A DNA stretch of 64,000 nucleotides from Cupriavidus phytohabitans (GTDB taxonomy: Bacteria; Pseudomonadota; Gammaproteobacteria; Burkholderiales; Burkholderiaceae). The notes beneath the pieces are model-generated. The model saw only the letters and a program-made list of their open reading frames with translations, did not search any database and had not been told where the DNA came from. Below, in pieces: positions 21,802 through 30,995 of the stretch (positions within the stretch are counted from its first letter, which is position 1; each line of letters begins with the position of its first letter). Where the stretch lies: positions 62,001-126,000 of the forward strand of contig NZ_AUFE01000003.1 of the NCBI RefSeq assembly GCF_000426345.1, given 5' to 3'. Position numbers and translations under genes: made by a program.

Positions 21802-23238
21802 TCAGAAAGTGATCGGCAGGCGCAGGTTCACCTGCAGGTCTGGCGTGTCCCGTGTCAGGCCCGCACCCACCGACAGGTTCAGCGTGTAGCGGTCGTTGAA
21901 GCGGTACGAGTAGCCCACCAGCAGCGTGCCTTGCGTGATGCGCACCGAGCCCGGCACGGTCTGTCCGTTCTGCTTGGTCGGCCAGATGATGGCCTGGTCA
22001 TAGCCGATACTGAACGAGGCCTTCTCGTTGAGCGACAGGCCCATGCCGAAGCTGAACTCGAAGATATCGCCCGGGGCGATCTTGCCCAGGTTCTCCGTCT
22101 GGCCGTTGAGCACCGTGCGGCTGACGTTGTCGCGAGCAAAGTTGTGCAGGTAGCTGAAGGTACCGAAGAACACCGCGGGGTCGGTCGGCAGCAGCCAGGT
22201 GATGCCCGGCTGGATGGCCTGGAAGCCGGTGCCGGTCGGCAGCCCGAGCGGCAGGCCGGTGCCGGTGGTGTTGCCCACGCAGCGCGTCACGCAATCGGTC
22301 ACCACTTCGAACGGATCCGTGCCGGTGGCCGACTTGTAGCGCAGCCAGCCGACGAAGTACGGCATCTTCTCGTTGCCGTAGTTGAGCTGGTAGCGCACCG
22401 TCGCCTCGACGTCGCCGAGGCCGGCGCCGCTGGCATTGAATACGTTGTCGACGGCGGTGCCGGTGAAGACTTCACGGCTGATGGTCGAGCCCGAGGTCTT
22501 CACATAAGGCACCTTGGCCTCGACTTCCAGCCGCTTGGTCACGCCATAGCGCAGCGCGATCGACGGGATGTAGGTCGAGGTCTTGACCTCGCGCACATCG
22601 AGCAGGCCGATCAGGATCGCGGGGATCACCGTGTAGCCCACCAGCGCCACGCGGTTGTTGGACGAGTAGCCGTACTGGAAGCCAGGCTCGACCACCAGCT
22701 TGCCCTGCGCGGTCAGCACGCCGGGCTGGTCGATGATCGGCGCGATCTCGGGCGGCCGGGTTTCGCGCTCGGGCGGGCGGCCCACGGGTTCTTCCACGGC
22801 CACGGTCTGCGGGTTGGCGGACTCGCCCGCCTGCGGGCCCTGCGCGACATCCTGAGGCGGCTGCAGCGTGATCTGCTGCGGGTTGTTGACCGCGTTGGGC
22901 GCGCTTTGCGCCGCGCTGGCCGCCGCCGCAGCGGTGGCGGCATTGGTGGCATTGTTGGACGGCGACACGCCGCCGCCGACGCCCTGGCCGCCGCGCTTGG
23001 TGGCCAGCACTTCATTGCTGATGACGCTGCGCAGCTCGCGGATGACTGCCTCTTGTTCGGCCAGTGCCCGCTTCATGGCGTCGAGCTGGGTGGCCTGTTC
23101 GGCGAGTTCCCTTTGCAGCATTTCCAGGCCCGCCGCGGGTCCGCCCGCATCCGGCGTCTGGGCCTGCGCCAGGCCACCGAGCAACAGCAACGTCGAGCAT
23201 CCGGCATTCCGGATGCCCTGCATCGACCGCTTCTTCAT
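21802..23238 (-). CDS. FapF-like outer membrane channel with N-terminal coiled coil
   Basis: The 478-residue protein has a signal peptide (to about residue 26, GLAQAQ), a coiled coil at about 38-75 (LEMLQRELAEQATQLDAMK, then ALAEQEAVIRELRSVI) and an Ala/Asn/Pro-rich linker to about residue 180. The rest is a beta-barrel of about 290 residues: LVVEPGFQYGYSSNNRVAL, TSTYIPSIALRYGVTKRLEVEAKVPY, LGDVEATVRYQLN, and a last strand ending VNLRLPITF with terminal Phe. This matches the design of FapF, the trimeric outer-membrane channel that exports Fap amyloid subunits, with its coiled-coil plug. The barrel also resembles the transporter group of Phenol_MetA_deg proteins. It is the last gene of an operon with a C39 peptidase, as in the fap operon. 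The ATG at 23236-23238 has GGAGGAAG upstream. Confidence 0.88.
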   Translation of the reverse strand: MKKRSMQGIRNAGCSTLLLLGGLAQAQTPDAGGPAAGLEMLQRELAEQATQLDAMKRALAEQEAVIRELRSVISNEVLATKRGGQGVGGGVSPSNNATNAATAAAAASAAQSAPNAVNNPQQITLQPPQDVAQGPQAGESANPQTVAVEEPVGRPPERETRPPEIAPIIDQPGVLTAQGKLVVEPGFQYGYSSNNRVALVGYTVIPAILIGLLDVREVKTSTYIPSIALRYGVTKRLEVEAKVPYVKTSGSTISREVFTGTAVDNVFNASGAGLGDVEATVRYQLNYGNEKMPYFVGWLRYKSATGTDPFEVVTDCVTRCVGNTTGTGLPLGLPTGTGFQAIQPGITWLLPTDPAVFFGTFSYLHNFARDNVSRTVLNGQTENLGKIAPGDIFEFSFGMGLSLNEKASFSIGYDQAIIWPTKQNGQTVPGSVRITQGTLLVGYSYRFNDRYTLNLSVGAGLTRDTPDLQVNLRLPITF

Positions 23239-23313
23239 CACGTCTTCCTCCCCCGGGACGGGCGGGCTATTGTCAGGAGCCCGCAACCTGTACTGCCTGC
23301 TGCTTCGCTACGA

Positions 23314-24192
23314 TTACCTCATGCTGGCGGCCCGCATCAACGCATCCTGCAGCGTCGTGTTGGCCAATTGCGACCGGAAAGCCTGCAGCGTATTCACGCT
23401 TGCGTCGATTGTCATCAGGCTCCGGATGCTCTGGTTGTTCAGACTGTTCTGGATCACCGTCGTGGGCGTACCCGCCAGCGACCCTACCGCGGCCGAATTG
23501 CCAGGGCCGTTCTGGATCACGTTCAACAGGCCGTTGGTCGCCACCTGGCCAGTGCTGGTCCCGACCACCGTCATGGGCGGGCCGGCAGCGCCGGCACTGC
23601 TGGCACTGCTGCCGCTGGCCGACGCGGACGCAGACGCGGCAGCACCGGCCGCACCGCTGGTCGACGCCGCAGCGCCGGCGCTCGCGCTGCCGGCCGACCC
23701 GTTCGCGCTTCCCTGAGCACCGCCCGTGAGACCCGCCAGCGCGCTATCGACCGCGGCGTTCGTGGAAGCCACAATGGCGGGACCCAGTGTCGTCGCCAGG
23801 CGCGCCGCCTGTTCTGCGGTGATGCGTCCGACGTCCGGGATGTTAATGCTGGTTGCGACGACCAGGGCCCCGTTGATATACACCGCGCGTTCGATACCGA
23901 ACGAAACTTGCAGGTTCGGCATCTCGAATCCGCCCCGCATCTCGTCAAGCTTTTCATGTGCGACCGGTTTCCAGCCGGCCATGCTGCCGCGCGCGGCAGC
24001 CACGGGTGTGTCAGTATCGCGGGCCGAAGCGGCTGCCTGCGATGGCAGCGCCGACGGGTCGAGCCGGTCGGGCTGGTCAAGCGAACTGGCATGTGCCACG
24101 CCGGCACAGGCCAGACCCGCACCAAGCAGCATCGCGGCCGCCGCCGTGGCGGTGCGAGGCGCTGCAGGGGTCGGGAGGGAAGTCTGCAACAT
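23314..24192 (-). CDS. Secreted protein with internal double-glycine motif (presumed C39 substrate)
   Basis: The 292-residue protein has a signal peptide ending GVAHA (residue 35). A hydrophilic propeptide-like part leads to HEKLDEMRGG at residues 80-88, with L82 at -7, M85 at -4 and G87-G88 at -2/-1, which fits the consensus cleaved by C39 peptidases. Beyond it come FEMPNLQVSFGIERAVYING and an Ala/Ser/Gly-rich stretch (about 155-205). The C-terminal part contains NVIQN and VIQNSLNNQSIRSLM. The gene lies between the C39 peptidase and the outer-membrane channel. The ATG at 24190-24192 has GAGGAA upstream; an ATG 30 bp earlier would overlap the peptidase gene. I do not recognise a named family. 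A surface or fibre component processed by the peptidase is the best guess. Confidence 0.85.
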   Translation of the reverse strand: MLQTSLPTPAAPRTATAAAAMLLGAGLACAGVAHASSLDQPDRLDPSALPSQAAASARDTDTPVAAARGSMAGWKPVAHEKLDEMRGGFEMPNLQVSFGIERAVYINGALVVATSINIPDVGRITAEQAARLATTLGPAIVASTNAAVDSALAGLTGGAQGSANGSAGSASAGAAASTSGAAGAAASASASASGSSASSAGAAGPPMTVVGTSTGQVATNGLLNVIQNGPGNSAAVGSLAGTPTTVIQNSLNNQSIRSLMTIDASVNTLQAFRSQLANTTLQDALMRAASMR

Positions 24193-24202
24193 GATGCATT
24201 CC

Positions 24203-24901
24203 TCAGAAATCGCCAACGCCATGCTTGGGCATGACAGTGAAAAACAGGCTATCCCGGTTGACTCCCATCCAGTAAGGGCCGCTGGGCGCCAGGCGCCAGT
24301 CCGCGGCCAGGTTGAAGCGCGCGTTGTCCGTGCGGTTGTGGATCACGAACAACAGCTGGCTTTCCCATACTTTTTCGAAGTGCTCGCGTGACATGGCACG
24401 TGTTCCGCGGGCCGGATCACCGACCAGCACGCGGTTGCCCTTCACACCCTTGATCACCACGAAATGGTGGTAGCCATTCTCGGCGATCAGCACAATGGCC
24501 GGCACCTGCGTTTCTTCCAGCTTGGAAAGCGGCAATTCATAGCCGTCTGCTTCATAGCCCAACGCGGCCAGGAAGCGCTTCATGTCCAGCAGCGAGAACC
24601 CTTCGGCGCGGATCTTGGCCTGGTCGCCGTTGAGATACATGCTCTGGAACACCGTGGCTTCGTTCATCGGATGGCCGTACTGGTAGGTCAGCAGCGTGGC
24701 CACCGCGGCCGAGCCGCAGCTGAAGTCGTATTGCTGCCGGATCGTGGATTTGAAGCGCGCTTCGCGAACGCTGGTGACCCTGACGTTGTAGGGTTCGCCT
24801 GACGGACCGTAGAAAAGCGTGTCTGCGGCGTGGGCACAGGGGGTGGCCCCCGCGACCAGAGCGAACGTTACAGACGCCAACAGTTTTCGCAGCAGCTTCA
24901 T
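24203..24901 (-). CDS. Periplasmic C39-family cysteine peptidase, FapD-like
   Basis: The 232-residue protein has a Sec signal peptide (to about residue 25, PCAHA) and a C39 peptidase domain. The catalytic residues are in place: Q57 and C62 in RQQYDFSCGSAAVATLLTYQ, H145/H146 in NGYHHFVVIKGVKG and D162 in VGDPARG. Bacteriocin-type C39 domains are fused to ABC transporters and act in the cytoplasm; this one is free and exported, as is FapD of Pseudomonas. The start codon overlaps the stop of the upstream gene by one base (TAATG), so translation is probably coupled. Two flanking genes encode proteins with double-glycine sites, which makes them the natural substrates. Length agrees with FapD (about 220-250). 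Confidence 0.93.
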   Translation of the reverse strand: MKLLRKLLASVTFALVAGATPCAHAADTLFYGPSGEPYNVRVTSVREARFKSTIRQQYDFSCGSAAVATLLTYQYGHPMNEATVFQSMYLNGDQAKIRAEGFSLLDMKRFLAALGYEADGYELPLSKLEETQVPAIVLIAENGYHHFVVIKGVKGNRVLVGDPARGTRAMSREHFEKVWESQLLFVIHNRTDNARFNLAADWRLAPSGPYWMGVNRDSLFFTVMPKHGVGDF

Positions 24902-25335
24902 TATTTGAACTGGACGTTGAGGATCGTGGCGTTCTGGATCAGCACGTTGGAGCCGGAATTCTGGATTGCCGTAGGAATTCCAGAGGCGCTCGCGAACGCG
25001 CCATCCGCAATATTGTTCGCACCGGACAACACGTTGACCGCCGCGTTTTCAGCCACGGTGCCGTGCAAGCGCATGTCGTTGACAGTAACTTCCGAACCAC
25101 CGCGGATATCATCTAGTTTAGTCACAGGTACAGCTTTCGCCACCCCGCCGAACAATGTGGTGTCGGCTGCGGCTGAAGGTTGCGTGTGAGCAACAGTCTC
25201 CTGAGGGACGCTTGCAACACTGCGTGCGGCTGCCATGGCCTGATCCAGCCCTGGCGGCTCTGCACTTGCCTGCAGTGCAGGACAGGCAAGTAGGACCGTC
25301 GCAAACGCACTGACGGCAATGCGGACCGATTGCAT
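24901..25335 (-). CDS. Small secreted protein with double-glycine motif
   Basis: The 144-residue protein has a signal peptide (to about residue 25, LQASAEP), a Ser/Thr/Ala-rich propeptide and the motif TKLDDIRGG at residues 72-80 (L74 at -7, I77 at -4, G79-G80 at -2/-1). This closely matches KLDEMRGG of the protein encoded two genes downstream. The predicted mature part of 64 residues begins SEVTVNDMRLHGTVAENA and ends IQNSGSNVLIQNATILNVQ, rich in Asn, Ile and Val and likely beta-forming. The gene directly precedes the C39 peptidase with a one-base overlap. The ATG at 25333-25335 has GGAGGA upstream. No known family. It could be an amyloid-like subunit or nucleator; this is inferred. Confidence 0.88.
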   Translation of the reverse strand: MQSVRIAVSAFATVLLACPALQASAEPPGLDQAMAAARSVASVPQETVAHTQPSAAADTTLFGGVAKAVPVTKLDDIRGGSEVTVNDMRLHGTVAENAAVNVLSGANNIADGAFASASGIPTAIQNSGSNVLIQNATILNVQFK

Positions 25336-25523
25336 GGTGTCATCCTCCCCAGGCCTCGTGCACGTACCCTGTCCCGGGCGGCACTAAGGCATATAGGCTT
25401 GCGTGGACGTGACAGGATCCGCGCGCCCGCACACAGGATGCGGGCGCCGGTCCTGCCGACATGGCATCGCGAAGTGCCGGCCCGCCCTCGCAATAAGCTC
25501 AGGCAGGGCCGAGTCTGCGCGTA

Positions 25524-27041
25524 TCAGGGGCCAGCGTTGACGTTGGCCTGCACGTTCACGCTCATCTGCGTCAGCGAGGCGGCGCCGCTGTTCTGGCTCG
25601 CCATCATGATGCCCGCCGCGGACTGACCGACGCTGGTCATCAGGTTGGACATGTTGAAGTCGCCTGTGGTGACGACGACGTATCCGCCAGCGCCGCCAGC
25701 GCCGCCAGCGCCGCCGTTGCCGACACCGCCAACGCCACCGGTACCGCCGGTGCCCGCACCGCCAGCGCCACCTGCACCGCCGGCGCCGCCGCTACCCGTG
25801 GTAGCGCTGCCGTTCGAGGCCGAGGTGCTGGCGCTGCCTGCGGATGCCGCACCACCAGCGCCACCGGCGCCGCCGGAAGCCGTCTGCGTGCCACCGGCAC
25901 CGCCAGTGCCCGAGCCAGCGCCGCCAGTTGACGACGAGGCCGCGGTGTTCGTGCCGCCGGCGCCGCCGGTGCCGCTGCCCGCACCACCGGTCGCCGTAGC
26001 GCCGGAGCTTCCGGAACCGCCTGCGCCACCGGTAGCGCCCGCTCCGCCGCCCGTGCCAGAGCCCGCACCAGCCGTGTTGGTCCCGGCAGCGGTTGCACCG
26101 GCACCCGCGCCACCCGCACCGGCCGTGTCGCCACCGCTACCGTTGGCATTGCCGCCCGAACCGCCGGAACCGCCAGCCGCACCGGCCAGACCGCCAAGGG
26201 CGCCGCTGGCCCCCAGGGCATCACCGCCGATCGCACCGGCGCTGCCGCCACGGCCGCCTGCACCGAGCGAAGCGCTCAGAGCACCGCCACCCTTGCCATA
26301 GCCACTGCCACCGCTGGCGCCCGCAGCGCCTGCCGCGCTAAGCGCGCTGCCGCCCTTGCCATAGCCGTCGCCGCCATTGGCACCCCAGTTGGAGGCACGC
26401 CCGCCGTCGCCGCCATCGCCTGCCCTGGCCGAGCCGGCCTTGGCCCAACCAGCCGTGGCGCTGCCATTGGATGCGGAGGCGCTACCGCCCTCTGCACCGA
26501 CGGCGCCGTTGCCGCCCGAACCACCTTGGCCAGTGCCACCGGCGCCGCCCGTGCCGCCCTTGCCACCGTAGCCGGTGCCGCCGTTGGCACTACCGGTGTT
26601 CGTGGCAACGTTGCCAATGCCATAGATGTTGTTGCCGCTCACGGTGCCATTCAGCTTGCTGACCGCAATTGCCGTGGTCTTGTTGAAGGAGCTGGCGATG
26701 CTGGACGATGCGGCGCCGCCAACAGCCGCCGCAGTCCCGATGCCGTCAGCCGAGGCCTTCAGGCGGTTGTCGGAATTGGTCTTGGTCTTCGTACTCGTCT
26801 TCGACTTCGTGACCGTGGTGGTCCGGGTGTCAGTGCTGCTGTCGGTGCTGTTGTCGTTCTTCTGGATGGCCTTCGAGTACTCGTTCGCCGCTGCGCCACT
26901 GCCGCTTTGCGTCGAGTTGGCTGTGGCGGTCTGGTTGTTGTCGCCACCACCCCCTACGCCGTCATTGTTGGTGGTCGGATTTGCCCATGCGGAACCCGCA
27001 AATGCCATGGCAATCGCCGACGCCAGTAAGGTCTTTTTCAT
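25524..27041 (-). CDS. Gly/Ala-rich secreted repetitive protein, presumed main structural subunit
   Basis: The 505-residue protein has a signal peptide (MKKTLLASAIAMAFAGSAWA), an Asn/Thr/Lys-rich part to about residue 150, and then some 300 residues of GGAGG-type sequence with Ser, Asn, Thr and Tyr (for instance GYGKGGSALSAAGAAGASGG, twice in related form). The last 50 residues are different: TTGDFNMSNLMTSVGQSAAGI and then SQNSGAASLTQMSVNVQANV. The QNSG-x(3)-L-x-Q-x(4)-NVQ pattern there is shared with the tail of the small double-glycine protein downstream. Low-complexity Gly-rich export proteins form fibres or matrices. As first gene of the operon with its own promoter region, it is likely the most abundant product. 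No double-glycine leader of the L(-7)/I(-4) type is seen. Start ATG at 27039-27041. Confidence 0.87.
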   Translation of the reverse strand: MKKTLLASAIAMAFAGSAWANPTTNNDGVGGGGDNNQTATANSTQSGSGAAANEYSKAIQKNDNSTDSSTDTRTTTVTKSKTSTKTKTNSDNRLKASADGIGTAAAVGGAASSSIASSFNKTTAIAVSKLNGTVSGNNIYGIGNVATNTGSANGGTGYGGKGGTGGAGGTGQGGSGGNGAVGAEGGSASASNGSATAGWAKAGSARAGDGGDGGRASNWGANGGDGYGKGGSALSAAGAAGASGGSGYGKGGGALSASLGAGGRGGSAGAIGGDALGASGALGGLAGAAGGSGGSGGNANGSGGDTAGAGGAGAGATAAGTNTAGAGSGTGGGAGATGGAGGSGSSGATATGGAGSGTGGAGGTNTAASSSTGGAGSGTGGAGGTQTASGGAGGAGGAASAGSASTSASNGSATTGSGGAGGAGGAGGAGTGGTGGVGGVGNGGAGGAGGAGGYVVVTTGDFNMSNLMTSVGQSAAGIMMASQNSGAASLTQMSVNVQANVNAGP

Positions 27042-27753: not shown

Positions 27754-28536
27754 ATGAGTGAAGCCGTCGTTCCCCTGTATCACCAGATTTACGTGGTACT
27801 GCGCCAGCAGATCGTCGAAGGACGCTTCGGCCAAGGTCCCCTGCCGGGGGAGATCGACCTGGCCAAGCAGTTCCACGCCTCGCGCGTGACCATGCGACGC
27901 GTGTTCGACCGGCTGGTGCAGGAAGGCCTGGTGCGGCGCCATCGCGGGCTCGGCACCTTCGTCAACCCGCACCCCGTGCGTCCCGCGTCGGCTACCGAGG
28001 AACGCGGCACCAGCCTGCTCGACAACATCATCGACATGGGCCAGAAGACGTCGGTGAAGGTGATCTCGATCGACGAAGTCCACGCCACGCCCGACGTGGC
28101 CGAGTCGCTGGGGATCCAGCCGGGGGATCCCGTGGTCAAGATCGTGCGCGTGCGCCACTACCGCAACCGGCCGCTGTCGCATATCACCGTCTACCTGCCG
28201 GCGGACCTGGGCCGCCCGATCTCGCGCAAGGCGCTGGAGGAAACCCCCGTGCTGCGCCTGCTCGAAGCCGGTGGCGTCAAGCTGGGCCGTGCCAGCCAGG
28301 TGCTGTCGGCGCGCCTGGCGGACGTGGTGGTGGCGCCGCTGCTGGACGTACCGGTGGGCGGCGCGCTGCTGGCGGTGCGCCGCGTAGTGAAGGATCAAGG
28401 CGGGCGCCCGGTGCAGTTGCTGCTCGGCCAGTACCGCCCCGACCGCTACGAGTACCGCATGGAGCTGTCGCCCGCCGGCGTGGACAGCGCCAATGTCTGG
28501 GTGGAAAGCGAGACCCGTCCCGGCCTGCGCGACTGA
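27754..28536 (+). CDS. GntR-family regulator with UTRA domain
   Basis: The 260-residue protein is a GntR regulator of the HutC type. The winged helix spans residues 1-75 with PLYHQIYVVLRQQIVEGRF, EIDLAKQFHASRVTMRRVFDRLVQEGLV and RRHRGLGTFV. The UTRA effector domain follows from about residue 90 (TSVKVISIDEVHATPDVAESLGI) with YLPADLGRPISRKALEETP. The ATG at 27754 has AAGGGAA upstream. It precedes a Bug / hydro-lyase operon by 90 bp and is very probably its repressor, sensing the organic acid or an intermediate. Confidence 0.94.
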   Translation: MSEAVVPLYHQIYVVLRQQIVEGRFGQGPLPGEIDLAKQFHASRVTMRRVFDRLVQEGLVRRHRGLGTFVNPHPVRPASATEERGTSLLDNIIDMGQKTSVKVISIDEVHATPDVAESLGIQPGDPVVKIVRVRHYRNRPLSHITVYLPADLGRPISRKALEETPVLRLLEAGGVKLGRASQVLSARLADVVVAPLLDVPVGGALLAVRRVVKDQGGRPVQLLLGQYRPDRYEYRMELSPAGVDSANVWVESETRPGLRD

Positions 28537-28626
28537 TCCCGTCCGCGCGCCGCGAGGCGAGGGATGCGGGGACACCCGAGTCGGGCGATACTGCGCACTC
28601 CCGATCACATCAAGCGAGGAATCGTC

Positions 28627-29679
28627 ATGCCTGTGTTCCGCCCGGTTTCATCCAGCCCGATCCGTCAGTCTCCGCCTGTGCCGGCTCGCCGCACCACGCT
28701 GCGACGGGTTGCCGCCATGGCCGCCTGCGGGCTGATCCTGCCACTTGCCGCCGCGGCGCAGGCGCAGGGCCAAGGCCAGAACCAGGTCGCCGGCGGCAAG
28801 CCGATCCGGATCCTGGTGGGCGCGCCCGCCGGCGGCACTACCGACACGCTGGCGCGCACCATCGCCCAGGAGATGTCGCAACTGCTGGAGCAGTCCGTGG
28901 TGGTCGAGAACCGGCCCGGCGCGGGCGGCAATATTGCCGCCGAGCTGGTCGCCAGGAGCGCGCCGGACGGCAGCACGCTGCTGATGAGCTTCACCAGCCA
29001 CACCATCAACGCCACGCTGTACAAGAAACTGCCCTTCGACCCGGTGCAGGATTTCACGCCGGTCACGCTGGTCGCCACCGTGCCCAGCGTGCTGGTGGCC
29101 ACGCCGAAGCTGCCTGCGAGTAACGTGCCCGAGCTGATCCGGCTGGCGCGCGCGGAGCCGGGCAAGCTGAATTTCGCCATCGGCTCGGTCGGCTCGTCGC
29201 TGCACATGGCCGGCGACATGTTCAAGATGATGACCGGCACCTATATCGTCAACATTCCATACAAGGGCACCGCGCCGGCGCTCACTGACGTGCTGGCCGG
29301 CCAGTGCGAGCTGATGTTCGCCAGCACGATCAACGTGCTGCCACACGTGCGCGCCGGCAAGCTCAAGGTGCTGGGCGTGACCAGCCCCGCGCCGATGTCG
29401 CAGTTCCCGGGCGCGGCGCCGATCGGCGCGACCGTCAAGGGCTTCGAGTCGAGCGCGTGGTTCGGCCTGTTCGGGCCGGCCGGCATGCCCGCGGAGGTCA
29501 CGCAGGCGCTCTACCAGGCGGCGCGCAAGGGGCTGGAATCCCCCGCGGTGCGCAAGCGCCTGGAAAATGACGGTGCGCAGCCGGTGGGCATGGCGCCCGA
29601 GGCGTTTGCTGCCTTCGTCAAGCAAGACGTGAAGCGCTGGGCCTCGGTGGTCAAGTATTCGGGGGCATCGCCGGAATGA
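28627..29679 (+). CDS. Bug/TctC substrate-binding protein
   Basis: The 350-residue protein is the third Bug-type receptor in this window. The signal region is long (about 47 residues) and contains RRTTLRRVAAMAACGLILPLA before AAAQAQ; the RR pair could be read as a Tat signal, but a Sec signal is usual in the family. The mature part shows KPIRILVGAPAGGTTDTLAR, VVVENRPGAGGNIAAELV and YKKLPFDPVQDFTPVT. The gene overlaps the hydro-lyase large subunit by 4 bp (ATGA), so the transported compound and the dehydrated compound are probably the same or linked. Confidence 0.95.
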   Translation: MPVFRPVSSSPIRQSPPVPARRTTLRRVAAMAACGLILPLAAAAQAQGQGQNQVAGGKPIRILVGAPAGGTTDTLARTIAQEMSQLLEQSVVVENRPGAGGNIAAELVARSAPDGSTLLMSFTSHTINATLYKKLPFDPVQDFTPVTLVATVPSVLVATPKLPASNVPELIRLARAEPGKLNFAIGSVGSSLHMAGDMFKMMTGTYIVNIPYKGTAPALTDVLAGQCELMFASTINVLPHVRAGKLKVLGVTSPAPMSQFPGAAPIGATVKGFESSAWFGLFGPAGMPAEVTQALYQAARKGLESPAVRKRLENDGAQPVGMAPEAFAAFVKQDVKRWASVVKYSGASPE

Positions 29680-30995
29680 GCGTGCCTGCGGACTCGCCTT
29701 GCCCTGATGCAACGGCCAGGCCGGCGACGCTGGCCCAGAAGCTGGTCGCCCGCGCGGCCGGCCTGGACTATGCCGAGATCGGCACGGTGGCGATGTGCCA
29801 GGTCGACCTGGCGATGTCGCACGATTCCAGCGGCCCGCGGCGCGTCGCGCCGCTGTTGCAGGAGCTCGGCGTAGGCGTGTGGGATCCGTCGCGCTACGTC
29901 GTGGTGACCGATCACTTCGTGCCGGGCGGCGATGCCCAGGCCGAATCGATCCTGCGCTTCACCCGCGACTGGACGCGCCAGGCCGGCGCCGAGCTGATCG
30001 ATGCCGAAGGCATCTGCCACGTGGTGCTGCCCGAACGCGGGCACGTGCTGCCGGGCCGCCTGATCGTCGGCGGCGACAGCCACAGCCCGACCGGCGGTGC
30101 GTTCGGCGCCTACATGTTTGGCGTGGGCGCCACCGAGATGGCCGGCGTGCTCGCCACCGGCCAGATCTGGCTGCGCGTACCGCACACGATCCGGCTGGAA
30201 TGGGATGGCGTACTCGCAACCGGGGTCTGCGCCAAGGACATCAACCTGTTCCTGTGCGCCACGCTCGGCCTGGGCGGCGGACGCTATGAAGCGCTCGAGT
30301 ACACCGGCAGCGCCGTTGCCGCGCTGCCGATGCAGGAGCGCATGACGCTGGCCAACATGAGCGCTGAACTGGGCGCGCAGACCGGCCTGGTTGCCCCCGA
30401 TGCGGTCACGCTGGACTGGCTGGCACAGGCCGGCGTGGCGGCGCAGGTGCTGGCACAGATCGACCTGTCGCACTGGCGCACCGACGCGCAGGCGCCGGTG
30501 CTGGCGCACCACCGCTTCGATGCCACGGCGCTGGCGCCGCAGGTGGCCGCGCCGCATTCGCCGGCCAACAGTGCGCCGGTCGACCAGGCCGCCGGCGAGC
30601 CGGTGCAGATCGCCTACCTCGGCGCCTGCACCGGCGCCAAGCTGGAAGACCTGCGCATGGCCGCGCGTGTATTGCGCGGACGCCGGGTCGCGCCGGGCGT
30701 CACGCTGCAGGTGGCCGCCGCCTCGCGCCGCGACCAGCAGCAGGCCGAACGCGAAGGCACGCTCGCGATCCTGGCCGAGGCCGGCGCCAGCCTGCTGCCC
30801 AACGCCTGCGGCGCCTGCGCCGGCTATGGCGCCGCGCGCTTTCCCGCCGGCAGCAGCGCCATCGCCTCGACCGCCCGCAACTTTTCCGGCCGCATGGGCG
30901 ATGCCGGCAGCGCGGTGTGGCTGGGCTCGCCGATGACCGTGGCCGCCAGCGCCGTCACCGGCCGCATTACCGACCCGCGCACCTTGCTGGCATAA
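29676..30995 (+). CDS. Aconitase-family hydro-lyase, large subunit (LeuC-like)
   Basis: The 439-residue protein belongs to the large-subunit group of 3-isopropylmalate dehydratase and homoaconitase. The three cluster-ligating cysteines are visible in IAYLGACTGAKLED and in LLPNACGACAGYGA. Further motifs are VVVTDHFVPGG, GRLIVGGDSHSPTGGAFGAYMFGVGATEMAGVLATGQ (here in parts) and GRITDPRTLLA. The length is typical. It overlaps the Bug gene and is followed after 55 bp by the small subunit. The pair probably dehydrates or hydrates a hydroxy-dicarboxylate that the Bug receptor brings in, for example a citramalate- or dimethylmalate-like acid. A role in leucine synthesis is unlikely in this context, since leuA and leuB are absent and a GntR gene is present. 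Confidence 0.92.
   Translation: MSVPADSPCPDATARPATLAQKLVARAAGLDYAEIGTVAMCQVDLAMSHDSSGPRRVAPLLQELGVGVWDPSRYVVVTDHFVPGGDAQAESILRFTRDWTRQAGAELIDAEGICHVVLPERGHVLPGRLIVGGDSHSPTGGAFGAYMFGVGATEMAGVLATGQIWLRVPHTIRLEWDGVLATGVCAKDINLFLCATLGLGGGRYEALEYTGSAVAALPMQERMTLANMSAELGAQTGLVAPDAVTLDWLAQAGVAAQVLAQIDLSHWRTDAQAPVLAHHRFDATALAPQVAAPHSPANSAPVDQAAGEPVQIAYLGACTGAKLEDLRMAARVLRGRRVAPGVTLQVAAASRRDQQQAEREGTLAILAEAGASLLPNACGACAGYGAARFPAGSSAIASTARNFSGRMGDAGSAVWLGSPMTVAASAVTGRITDPRTLLA

What the first reader, a model, noticed from the sequence alone, without database searches (positions are those of the whole stretch)
21802..27041. Fap-like secretion operon with two Sec-exported double-glycine proteins and a free periplasmic C39 peptidase
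Five minus-strand genes combine a Gly-rich secreted protein, two proteins that carry both a Sec signal and an internal double-glycine site, an exported C39 peptidase and a coiled-coil outer-membrane channel. The peptidase and channel pair is the hallmark of the Fap functional-amyloid system (FapD, FapF). The presumed substrates do not look like FapB or FapC, so this may be a related but distinct fibre or matrix exporter of beta-proteobacteria. The architecture is seen directly; the comparison with Fap follows from known family layouts; the function is inferred.
Basis: partly seen in the sequence, partly recalled or inferred. Interest (0 to 1): 0.9.

Follow-up and report, generated by a model that had tools for sequence, protein, structure and literature searches.

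The report
Sister system to Fap amyloid export
Five neighbouring genes in a probable Cupriavidus bacterium most likely build and export a glycine-rich surface polymer with a relative of the Pseudomonas amyloid machine, and their unusually clear cutting sites give a testable guess at what that machine's protease cuts.

Summary
Five minus-strand genes (21802-27041) encode a Gly-rich exported protein (P1), two Sec-type proteins with a double-glycine site (P2, P4), a free C39 peptidase (P3) and a FapF-like channel (P5). All five occur in 64 of 64 related loci of at least 12 kb, P1-P4 always in that order on one strand. P3 and P5 are FapD/FapF homologues but form a sister lineage; 15 of 150 sampled genomes carry both kinds.

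Main new point: L-x-x-x-R-G-G is nearly invariant in P2 (65 of 66) and P4 (68 of 68), degenerate in P5, and matched by L/M-x-x-x-[R/T]-G-[K/R] in 33 of 33 FapE proteins. FapD's target was published as unclear, so this is a direct, testable proposal. No cleavage, fibre or secretion was shown, and no Pseudomonas sequence was reached. The Neisseria nap island is a published C39/FapF/GG precedent.

The parts
25524..27041 (-). P1: 505-aa exported protein; Asn/Thr/Ser-rich N-part, Gly-rich core (43% Gly over residues 131-450), conserved C-terminal module; presumed major secreted subunit
   Evidence: no Pfam/NCBIfam/PHROG hit
24901..25335 (-). P2: 144-aa protein with signal peptide, ~55-aa propeptide, LDDIRGG site and 64-aa mature part remotely resembling one FapB-like repeat
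25096..25116 (-). P2 predicted C39 site LDDIRGG
   Evidence: L(-7) 66/66, R(-3) 66/66, G(-2) 66/66, G(-1) 65/66 dereplicated rows
24203..24901 (-). P3: free C39 cysteine peptidase with signal peptide (FapD-like); Q56, C62, H146, D162 invariant
   Evidence: 81 of 81 rows; overlaps the P2 stop (TAATG)
23314..24222 (-). P4: 302-aa frame (or 292 aa from ATG 24192); signal peptide, propeptide, LDEMRGG site; FapE-like by position and site
23929..23949 (-). P4 predicted C39 site LDEMRGG
   Evidence: all four positions 68/68 dereplicated rows
21802..23238 (-). P5: 478-aa outer-membrane channel, FapF-like: heptad segment about 37-75, linker, barrel about 165-478
22987..23007 (-). LATKRGG at the heptad-segment/linker junction of P5; candidate third C39 site
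   Evidence: columns L 69, R 69, G 56, G 31 of 77 rows; L...RG[GA] in the first 170 residues in 45 of 77, in a few at another place; exact L...RGG in 28 of 30 rows L054-L083

Best explanation
This is a Fap-type (FapD/FapF-class) export and assembly system, a sister lineage of the Pseudomonas Fap amyloid system, carrying a glycine-rich main subunit. All five products are exported by Sec. In the periplasm P3 cuts P2 and P4 after the RGG of L-x-x-x-R-G-G, removing ~50-aa propeptides that would keep these seeding subunits inactive or target them. The mature P2 (one remotely FapB-like repeat) and P4 (FapE-like) cross the outer membrane through the P5 channel with P1, and seed or anchor a Gly-rich fibre or matrix of P1 on the cell surface. 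P3 may also cut P5 at its heptad/linker junction. Shown: homology, gene set, tree, site conservation, conserved catalytic residues. Inferred: cleavage, export, roles of P2 and P4, polymer formation.
For: P3-FapD and P5-FapF homology; all five genes in 64 of 64 loci of at least 12 kb, P1-P4 in order on one strand in all 64, P5 same strand downstream in 48, opposite downstream in 9, opposite upstream in 7; four site positions nearly invariant in two proteins whose N-terminal parts otherwise hardly align, 0 of 186 control frames; catalytic residues invariant in 81 of 81; the P4 profile aligns with the FapE profile exactly at the site, prob 89%, E 2.2e-6, reversed P4 0.1%; P2 and P1 C-termini match the P1-slot C-terminus of intermediate loci (97%, 2e-11; 96%, 3e-9; that alignment has 5 sequences), which matches FapB (88%, 3.5e-6), reversed controls at most 12.4%. 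FapD's active site is needed for FapC secretion and only FapE lacked N-terminal peptides (PMC5557850, passages).
Against: No expression, secretion or cleavage data. The FapB/C repeat model finds no hit in P1, P2 or P4; P1 C-terminus to FapB directly is 8%, to FapC and FapE nil. The P4 mature part alone hardly matches FapE (prob 2%, E 0.02), so the P4-FapE link rests on position and the site segment. P5 is on the other strand in 16 of 64 loci. AlphaFold models of P2 and P4 are too weak to use (pTM 0.22, 0.25). Scores lie well below NCBIfam's FapD/FapF cut-offs.
Confidence: 0.7

Rival explanations
1. It exports small bioactive peptides (like the Neisseria Nap peptides): P2, and perhaps P4, are bacteriocin- or signal-like GG peptides processed by P3 and released by P5, with P1 as a separate matrix protein.
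For: The nap island pairs a C39 peptidase (NapP), a FapF homologue (NapF) and GG peptides, proposed to be cleaved in the periplasm (PMC11798529, passages); mature P2 is only 64 aa.
Against: P1 is present with P2 in 64 of 64 loci of at least 12 kb; mature P2 is not cationic (2 K+R, 4 D+E), whereas the Naps are described as cationic; P2 is related to the P1 C-terminus and remotely to FapB.
Confidence: 0.12
2. P2 and P4 are not cut: L-x-x-x-R-G-G is a docking element for P3, which acts as chaperone or gatekeeper, and the channel is the regulated part.
For: FapE keeps L/M(-7) and G(-2) but has K or R at -1 in 33 of 33, and P2 homologues of intermediate loci have T, M, R or Q at -1 in the 4 seen, unusual for a C39 cut; some C39-like domains are non-catalytic (PMC5557850, passage).
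Against: P3 keeps Q56, C62, H146 and D162 in 81 of 81; in this system -1 is G in 65 of 66 and 68 of 68; the FapD active-site Cys was needed for FapC secretion in the E. coli assay (PMC5557850).
Confidence: 0.13
3. P5 is a COG4313-type uptake channel for hydrophobic compounds and its place beside the other genes is incidental.
For: FapF barrels resemble the COG4313 uptake family (PMC6173800, passage); neighbouring genes in the window look catabolic by eye.
Against: P5 is closest to FapF by profile and by solved-structure sequence and stays with P1-P4 in 64 of 64 loci even where its strand differs.
Confidence: 0.03

Closest known systems
Fap (functional amyloid of Pseudomonas), FapABCDEF
   Same: Sec-exported C39 peptidase (FapD-like), FapF-type barrel, FapE-like protein between the two genes; related site in FapE; remote FapB-like module in P1 and P2
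   Different: No FapA hit; no multi-repeat FapC; Gly-rich main subunit; full RGG sites in two proteins; separate clade for peptidase and channel; both systems coexist in some genomes
nap island of Neisseria gonorrhoeae (NapP, NapF, NapA-C; PMC11798529, passages)
   Same: C39 peptidase, FapF homologue and double-glycine substrates, cleavage proposed in the periplasm
   Different: Small cationic peptides for autolysis; no Gly-rich subunit mentioned in the passages seen; sequences not compared here
Fil system (FilB, FilC), putative pilus (NCBIfam names)
   Same: FilB C39 peptidase about as close as FapD (138.9 vs 147.3 bits)
   Different: FilC weak (40 bits, cut-off 630); gene set not compared
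Intermediate loci L177-L182 of the same class (no published name met in the searches made)
   Same: P3, P4 and P5 homologues in 6 of 6 and P2 homologues in 5 of 6; RGG in P4 in 6 of 6; same C-terminal module in the P1 slot (5-sequence alignment)
   Different: P1 slot holds Asn/Asp/Ser-rich rather than Gly-rich cores; P2 site ends in T, M, R or Q in the 4 seen

Membership tests
Fap (sensu stricto) | FapD at NCBIfam cut-off (330 bits) | tested here: not met
   147.3 bits. The cut-off is strict: four Fap loci of the same family scored 201.2-205.1, and none of 369 class genomes reached it, best 284
Fap (sensu stricto) | FapF at NCBIfam cut-off (700 bits) | tested here: not met
   137.7 bits; the same four Fap loci scored 361.5-392.1
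Fap (sensu stricto) | FapF-type outer-membrane barrel | tested here: met
   phmmer to 5o67, 5o65, 5o68: E 1.4e-26 to 1.7e-25 over 311-314 residues; by sequence only
Fap (sensu stricto) | FapC/FapB amyloid repeats | tested here: not met
   29-aa repeat model: no frame of 9724 in L054-L133 reaches 6 bits; only remote profile links through intermediates
Fap (sensu stricto) | FapE | tested here: inconclusive
   P4: no NCBIfam FapE hit; profile match to FapE at the site prob 89%, reversed 0.1%; mature part alone 2%
Fap (sensu stricto) | FapA chaperone | tested here: not met
   no FapA model hit for P1, P2 or P4 at E up to 1; absence of FapA is the commonest variant in Fap too (PMC6173800, passage)
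Fap (sensu stricto) | Falls in the Fap clade of peptidase and channel | tested here: not met
   33 FapD and 31 FapF rows on one side (100/100 in both); window type (21 rows chosen) a group of its own (97/92 and 100/99)
Fap (sensu stricto) | Extracellular amyloid fibres | not testable with these tools
   needs wet work
Fap-type (FapD/FapF-class) exporters in the broad sense | Free C39 peptidase with signal peptide plus FapF-homologous channel in one conserved locus | tested here: met
   signal peptide by eye
Nap | GG peptides with C39 and FapF homologue; autolysis function | not tested
   architecture known from passages only; no Neisseria sequence was compared
Fil | FilB/FilC at NCBIfam cut-off | tested here: not met
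   138.9 of 475 and 40 of 630 bits

The most novel reading that the evidence does not exclude
L-x-x-x-[R/T]-G-[G/K/R] is the ancestral recognition and cutting element of FapD-class periplasmic C39 peptidases. They cut a seeding subunit (FapE/P4 type), a second small subunit (P2 type, or the unnamed 'LWDE' protein of some Fap loci), and in this lineage also the channel, freeing its coiled coil. FapE is then the long-sought FapD substrate, cut near residue 40 of the FapE profile.
Probability: 0.45. Interest if true: 0.75.

Novelty: new variant of a known kind. Interest (0 to 1): 0.6.

Why it matters
Fap secretion needs the FapD active site, yet its target was reported as unclear in 2017 and undetermined in 2018 (PMC5557850, PMC6173800, passages), and a 2022 review still calls FapD's role unclear (PMC9268375, passage). 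A widespread sister system in which two partner proteins carry nearly invariant, canonical-looking C39 sites gives a short motif that can be followed back into FapE and tested by N-terminal sequencing. It also suggests that the FapD/FapF pair exports more than repeat amyloids: the P1 slot holds Gly-rich or Asn-rich cores on a shared C-terminal module. Surveys that require FapB/C repeats (as in PMC12392863, passage) would be expected to miss such loci.

Tried and rejected
Direct search of a FapB/C repeat model against P1, P2 and P4: nothing. Structure prediction of P2 and P4: too weak, so no fold search was run. FapE seeds by phmmer against the 80 named loci: no hit. Rfam, 7.5 kb: none at gathering threshold. 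Promoter/terminator scan: 1 and 5 sites against means of 0.6 and 4.5 in shuffles, so nothing above chance. A first, differently worded motif pattern found 52 of 79 P2 and 70 of 80 P4, some at wrong places; the aligned counts replace it. The first count of the FapE site used a pattern that fixes L/M(-7) and G(-2); a count of alignment columns without any pattern gave the same numbers. A first heptad test that counted Ala was not significant (2126 of 5000 shuffles); without Ala, on a segment picked by eye, 5 of 20000. Attempts to reach a Pseudomonas genome failed: AlgF rang in 0 of 369 class genomes and in no control, which does not prove absence, and the orders of G289 and G281 held 1 and 4 genomes. 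So the place of the site in Pseudomonas FapE is inferred only through the NCBIfam FapE profile (about position 40-41, counted without gaps). The idea that the small first gene of Fap loci is FapA was rejected: 0 of 6 such proteins hit a FapA model.
Full report
WHAT IS THERE. The window is G000:C3:62001-126000 of a 7.58-Mb genome. The nearest named relative of the peptidase is in Cupriavidus sp. LEh25 (92% identity), so the organism is very probably a Cupriavidus; this is inference. On the minus strand, in transcription order, lie P1 (27041-25524), P2 (25335-24901), P3 (24901-24203), P4 (24222 or 24192-23314) and P5 (23238-21802). P2 and P3 share a TAATG; P3 and P4 overlap or nearly touch; the P1-P2 gap is 188 bases and the P4-P5 gap 75. 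A GC-rich hairpin followed by TTTT just after P5 (about 21800-21781) is visible by eye, but the scan found nothing above chance. All five products begin with signal-peptide-like sequence (by eye). The own genome has one match to P3 at E 1e-10 or better, the window's, so no second FapD-like peptidase was found in it.

IDENTITIES. P3 is a C39 peptidase (Pfam 87.7 bits, cut-off 22), closest to FapD (147.3 bits) and FilB (138.9); at 232 aa it has no room for an ABC transporter. P5 matches FapF (137.7 bits) and, over residues 165-478, the crystallised FapF barrel (E 1.4e-26). Residues 37-75 of P5 show a heptad pattern (segment chosen by eye). P1, P2 and P4 have no family hit in Pfam, NCBIfam or PHROGs apart from one chance-level Pfam line for P4.

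CONSERVATION. A scan of one genome for each of 84,980 species gave 534 stretches encoding a relative of P3; the best 80 were kept. They lie in Cupriavidus, Paraburkholderia, Burkholderia, Pararobbsia, Polaromonas, Rhodoferax, Lysobacter, Pseudoxanthomonas, Luteimonas and others. Of the 64 loci of at least 12 kb, 64 have all five genes (phmmer E up to 1e-3). P1, P2, P3, P4 are in this order on one strand in 64 of 64; P5 is downstream on the same strand in 48, downstream on the other strand in 9, upstream on the other strand in 7. Of the 16 shorter loci 11 have all five and 5 lack one to three. C. metallidurans CH34 has all five.

SISTER OF FAP. Among 150 genomes of the family (the own one included), 67 have a match. 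By hand from that table, 35 genomes hold a close relative (56% identity or more), 46 hold a second class (33-40%), 15 hold both, and one holds neither kind clearly. I fetched 20 of the 46; all 20 have a FapF-like gene and a FapE-like gene next to the peptidase. Four were scored: FapF 361.5-392.1 bits and FapD 201.2-205.1 bits; three FapE scored E 1e-9 to 1e-13. In trees of 60 peptidases and 58 channels the Fap rows form one side (100/100 in both) and the window type a group of its own (97/92 and 100/99); six intermediate loci (L177-L182) fall with the window type against Fap. The two systems are therefore distinct lineages.

THE SITE. The N-terminal parts of P2 and P4 hardly align even among orthologues. 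Yet both carry L-x-x-x-R-G-G: L(-7), R(-3) and G(-2) in 66 of 66 P2 rows and 68 of 68 P4 rows; G(-1) in 65 of 66 (one Ala, L086) and 68 of 68 (dereplicated from 80 and 81). Hydrophobic residues at -7 and -4 before GG are typical of double-glycine leaders (recalled, not from a call); in P2 position -4 is not always hydrophobic (14 His, 7 Tyr of 66). Of 186 other signal-peptide-like frames in the same loci none has L...RGG within residues 25-140, and of 77 P1 proteins none has it. The catalytic Cys, His, Asp and oxyanion Gln of P3 are invariant in 81 of 81 rows (the roles are from knowledge of the family). The channel P5 has the same motif once, at residues 78-84, where the heptad segment gives way to the linker. 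By column: L 69, R 69, G 56, G 31 of 77; exact L...RGG in 28 of 30 rows of L054-L083; degenerate or absent in many others.

BACK TO FAP. FapE sits between fapD and fapF, as P4 sits between P3 and P5. In an alignment of 33 FapE proteins (20 of the window's family, 13 of other families of the class), counted by column without any pattern: -7 L 30, M 3; -3 R 18, T 15; -2 G 33; -1 K 24, R 9. A segment like that of P4 follows (FapE ELSGMRGRFIDGNKILYFGIQM, P4 KLDEMRGGFEMPNLQVSFGIER). FapE of an Aeromonas caviae record has ELAHLRGRY. Profile comparison aligns P4 with FapE exactly there (prob 89%, E 2.2e-6, 33 columns; reversed P4 0.1%), but mature P4 without the site barely matches FapE (2%, E 0.02). 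The site falls at about position 40-41 of the 247-position NCBIfam FapE profile. In Pseudomonas sp. UK4, FapE was the only Fap protein with no peptides in its first ~70 residues, FapD needs its active-site Cys, and its target was called unclear (PMC5557850, passages; also PMC6173800). In at least 14 of 33 Fap loci a small unnamed gene with an LWDE motif also carries a related site, full RGG in six of the 14; the pattern missed two more such genes, in L036 (RGR) and L169 (RAR). Against a simple reading, these sites and FapE often lack the second glycine.

SUBSTRATES. P1 is 31% Gly overall and 43% over residues 131-450. Its C-terminal end and the mature part of P2 match the C-terminus of the P1-slot proteins of intermediate loci (96%, 3.3e-9; 97%, 2.1e-11; 5 sequences), which matches FapB (88%, 3.5e-6). 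P2 to FapB directly is 48%, 1.8e-4; P1 to FapB directly 8%; reversed controls at most 12.4%. A plain model of the FapB/C repeat finds none of them, so this link is remote.

MECHANISM. I propose: Sec export of all; P3 cuts P2 and P4 after RGG; mature P2 and P4 and P1 leave through P5; P2 and P4 seed or anchor a Gly-rich polymer of P1. Homology, gene set and site are shown; cleavage, export and polymer are inferred.

NOVELTY. The combination C39 + FapF homologue + GG substrates is in print for the Neisseria nap island (PMC11798529, passages), and colocalised fapD/fapF homologues in five more phyla were noted in 2018 (PMC6173800, passage). A search for Cupriavidus with functional amyloid and Fap gave 1 paper (a barrel database, listing only); for Cupriavidus, C39 and glycine-rich, 0; for FapE, FapD, cleavage and FapF since 2018, 9 papers, four of which I checked by passages without meeting a cleavage site. 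Further searches: (listings). Only open-licence PMC papers were searchable and supplements could not be read. I therefore call it a new variant of a known kind whose value is the testable site.

Noticed in passing
L039, L043-L047, L049-L053, L165, L166, L171; also L036, L169: At least 14 of 33 canonical Fap loci, plus two missed by the pattern, carry an extra small exported protein ending in an LWDE motif with a site like L...RG[G/R/T] before it; 6 tested have no FapA hit. LWDE proteins also occur in L177 and L178.
   Followed up: partly
L177-L182: Intermediate loci in which the P1 slot holds Asn/Asp/Ser-rich sequence, in several on the same C-terminal module as P1.
   Followed up: partly
L088, L091, L092, L102, L103, L122, L133: Paraburkholderia-type loci with two P1-like frames in tandem (visible part of a cut output).
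   Followed up: no
window 27754-30995: Upstream of the operon, on the plus strand, a GntR/UTRA-like regulator, a Bug/TctC-like receptor and an aconitase-like frame (names by eye); the operon sits among catabolic-looking genes.
   Followed up: no
L185: The 4.9-Mb Aeromonas caviae 'plasmid' NZ_AP026896.1 is the size of a chromosome.
   Followed up: no
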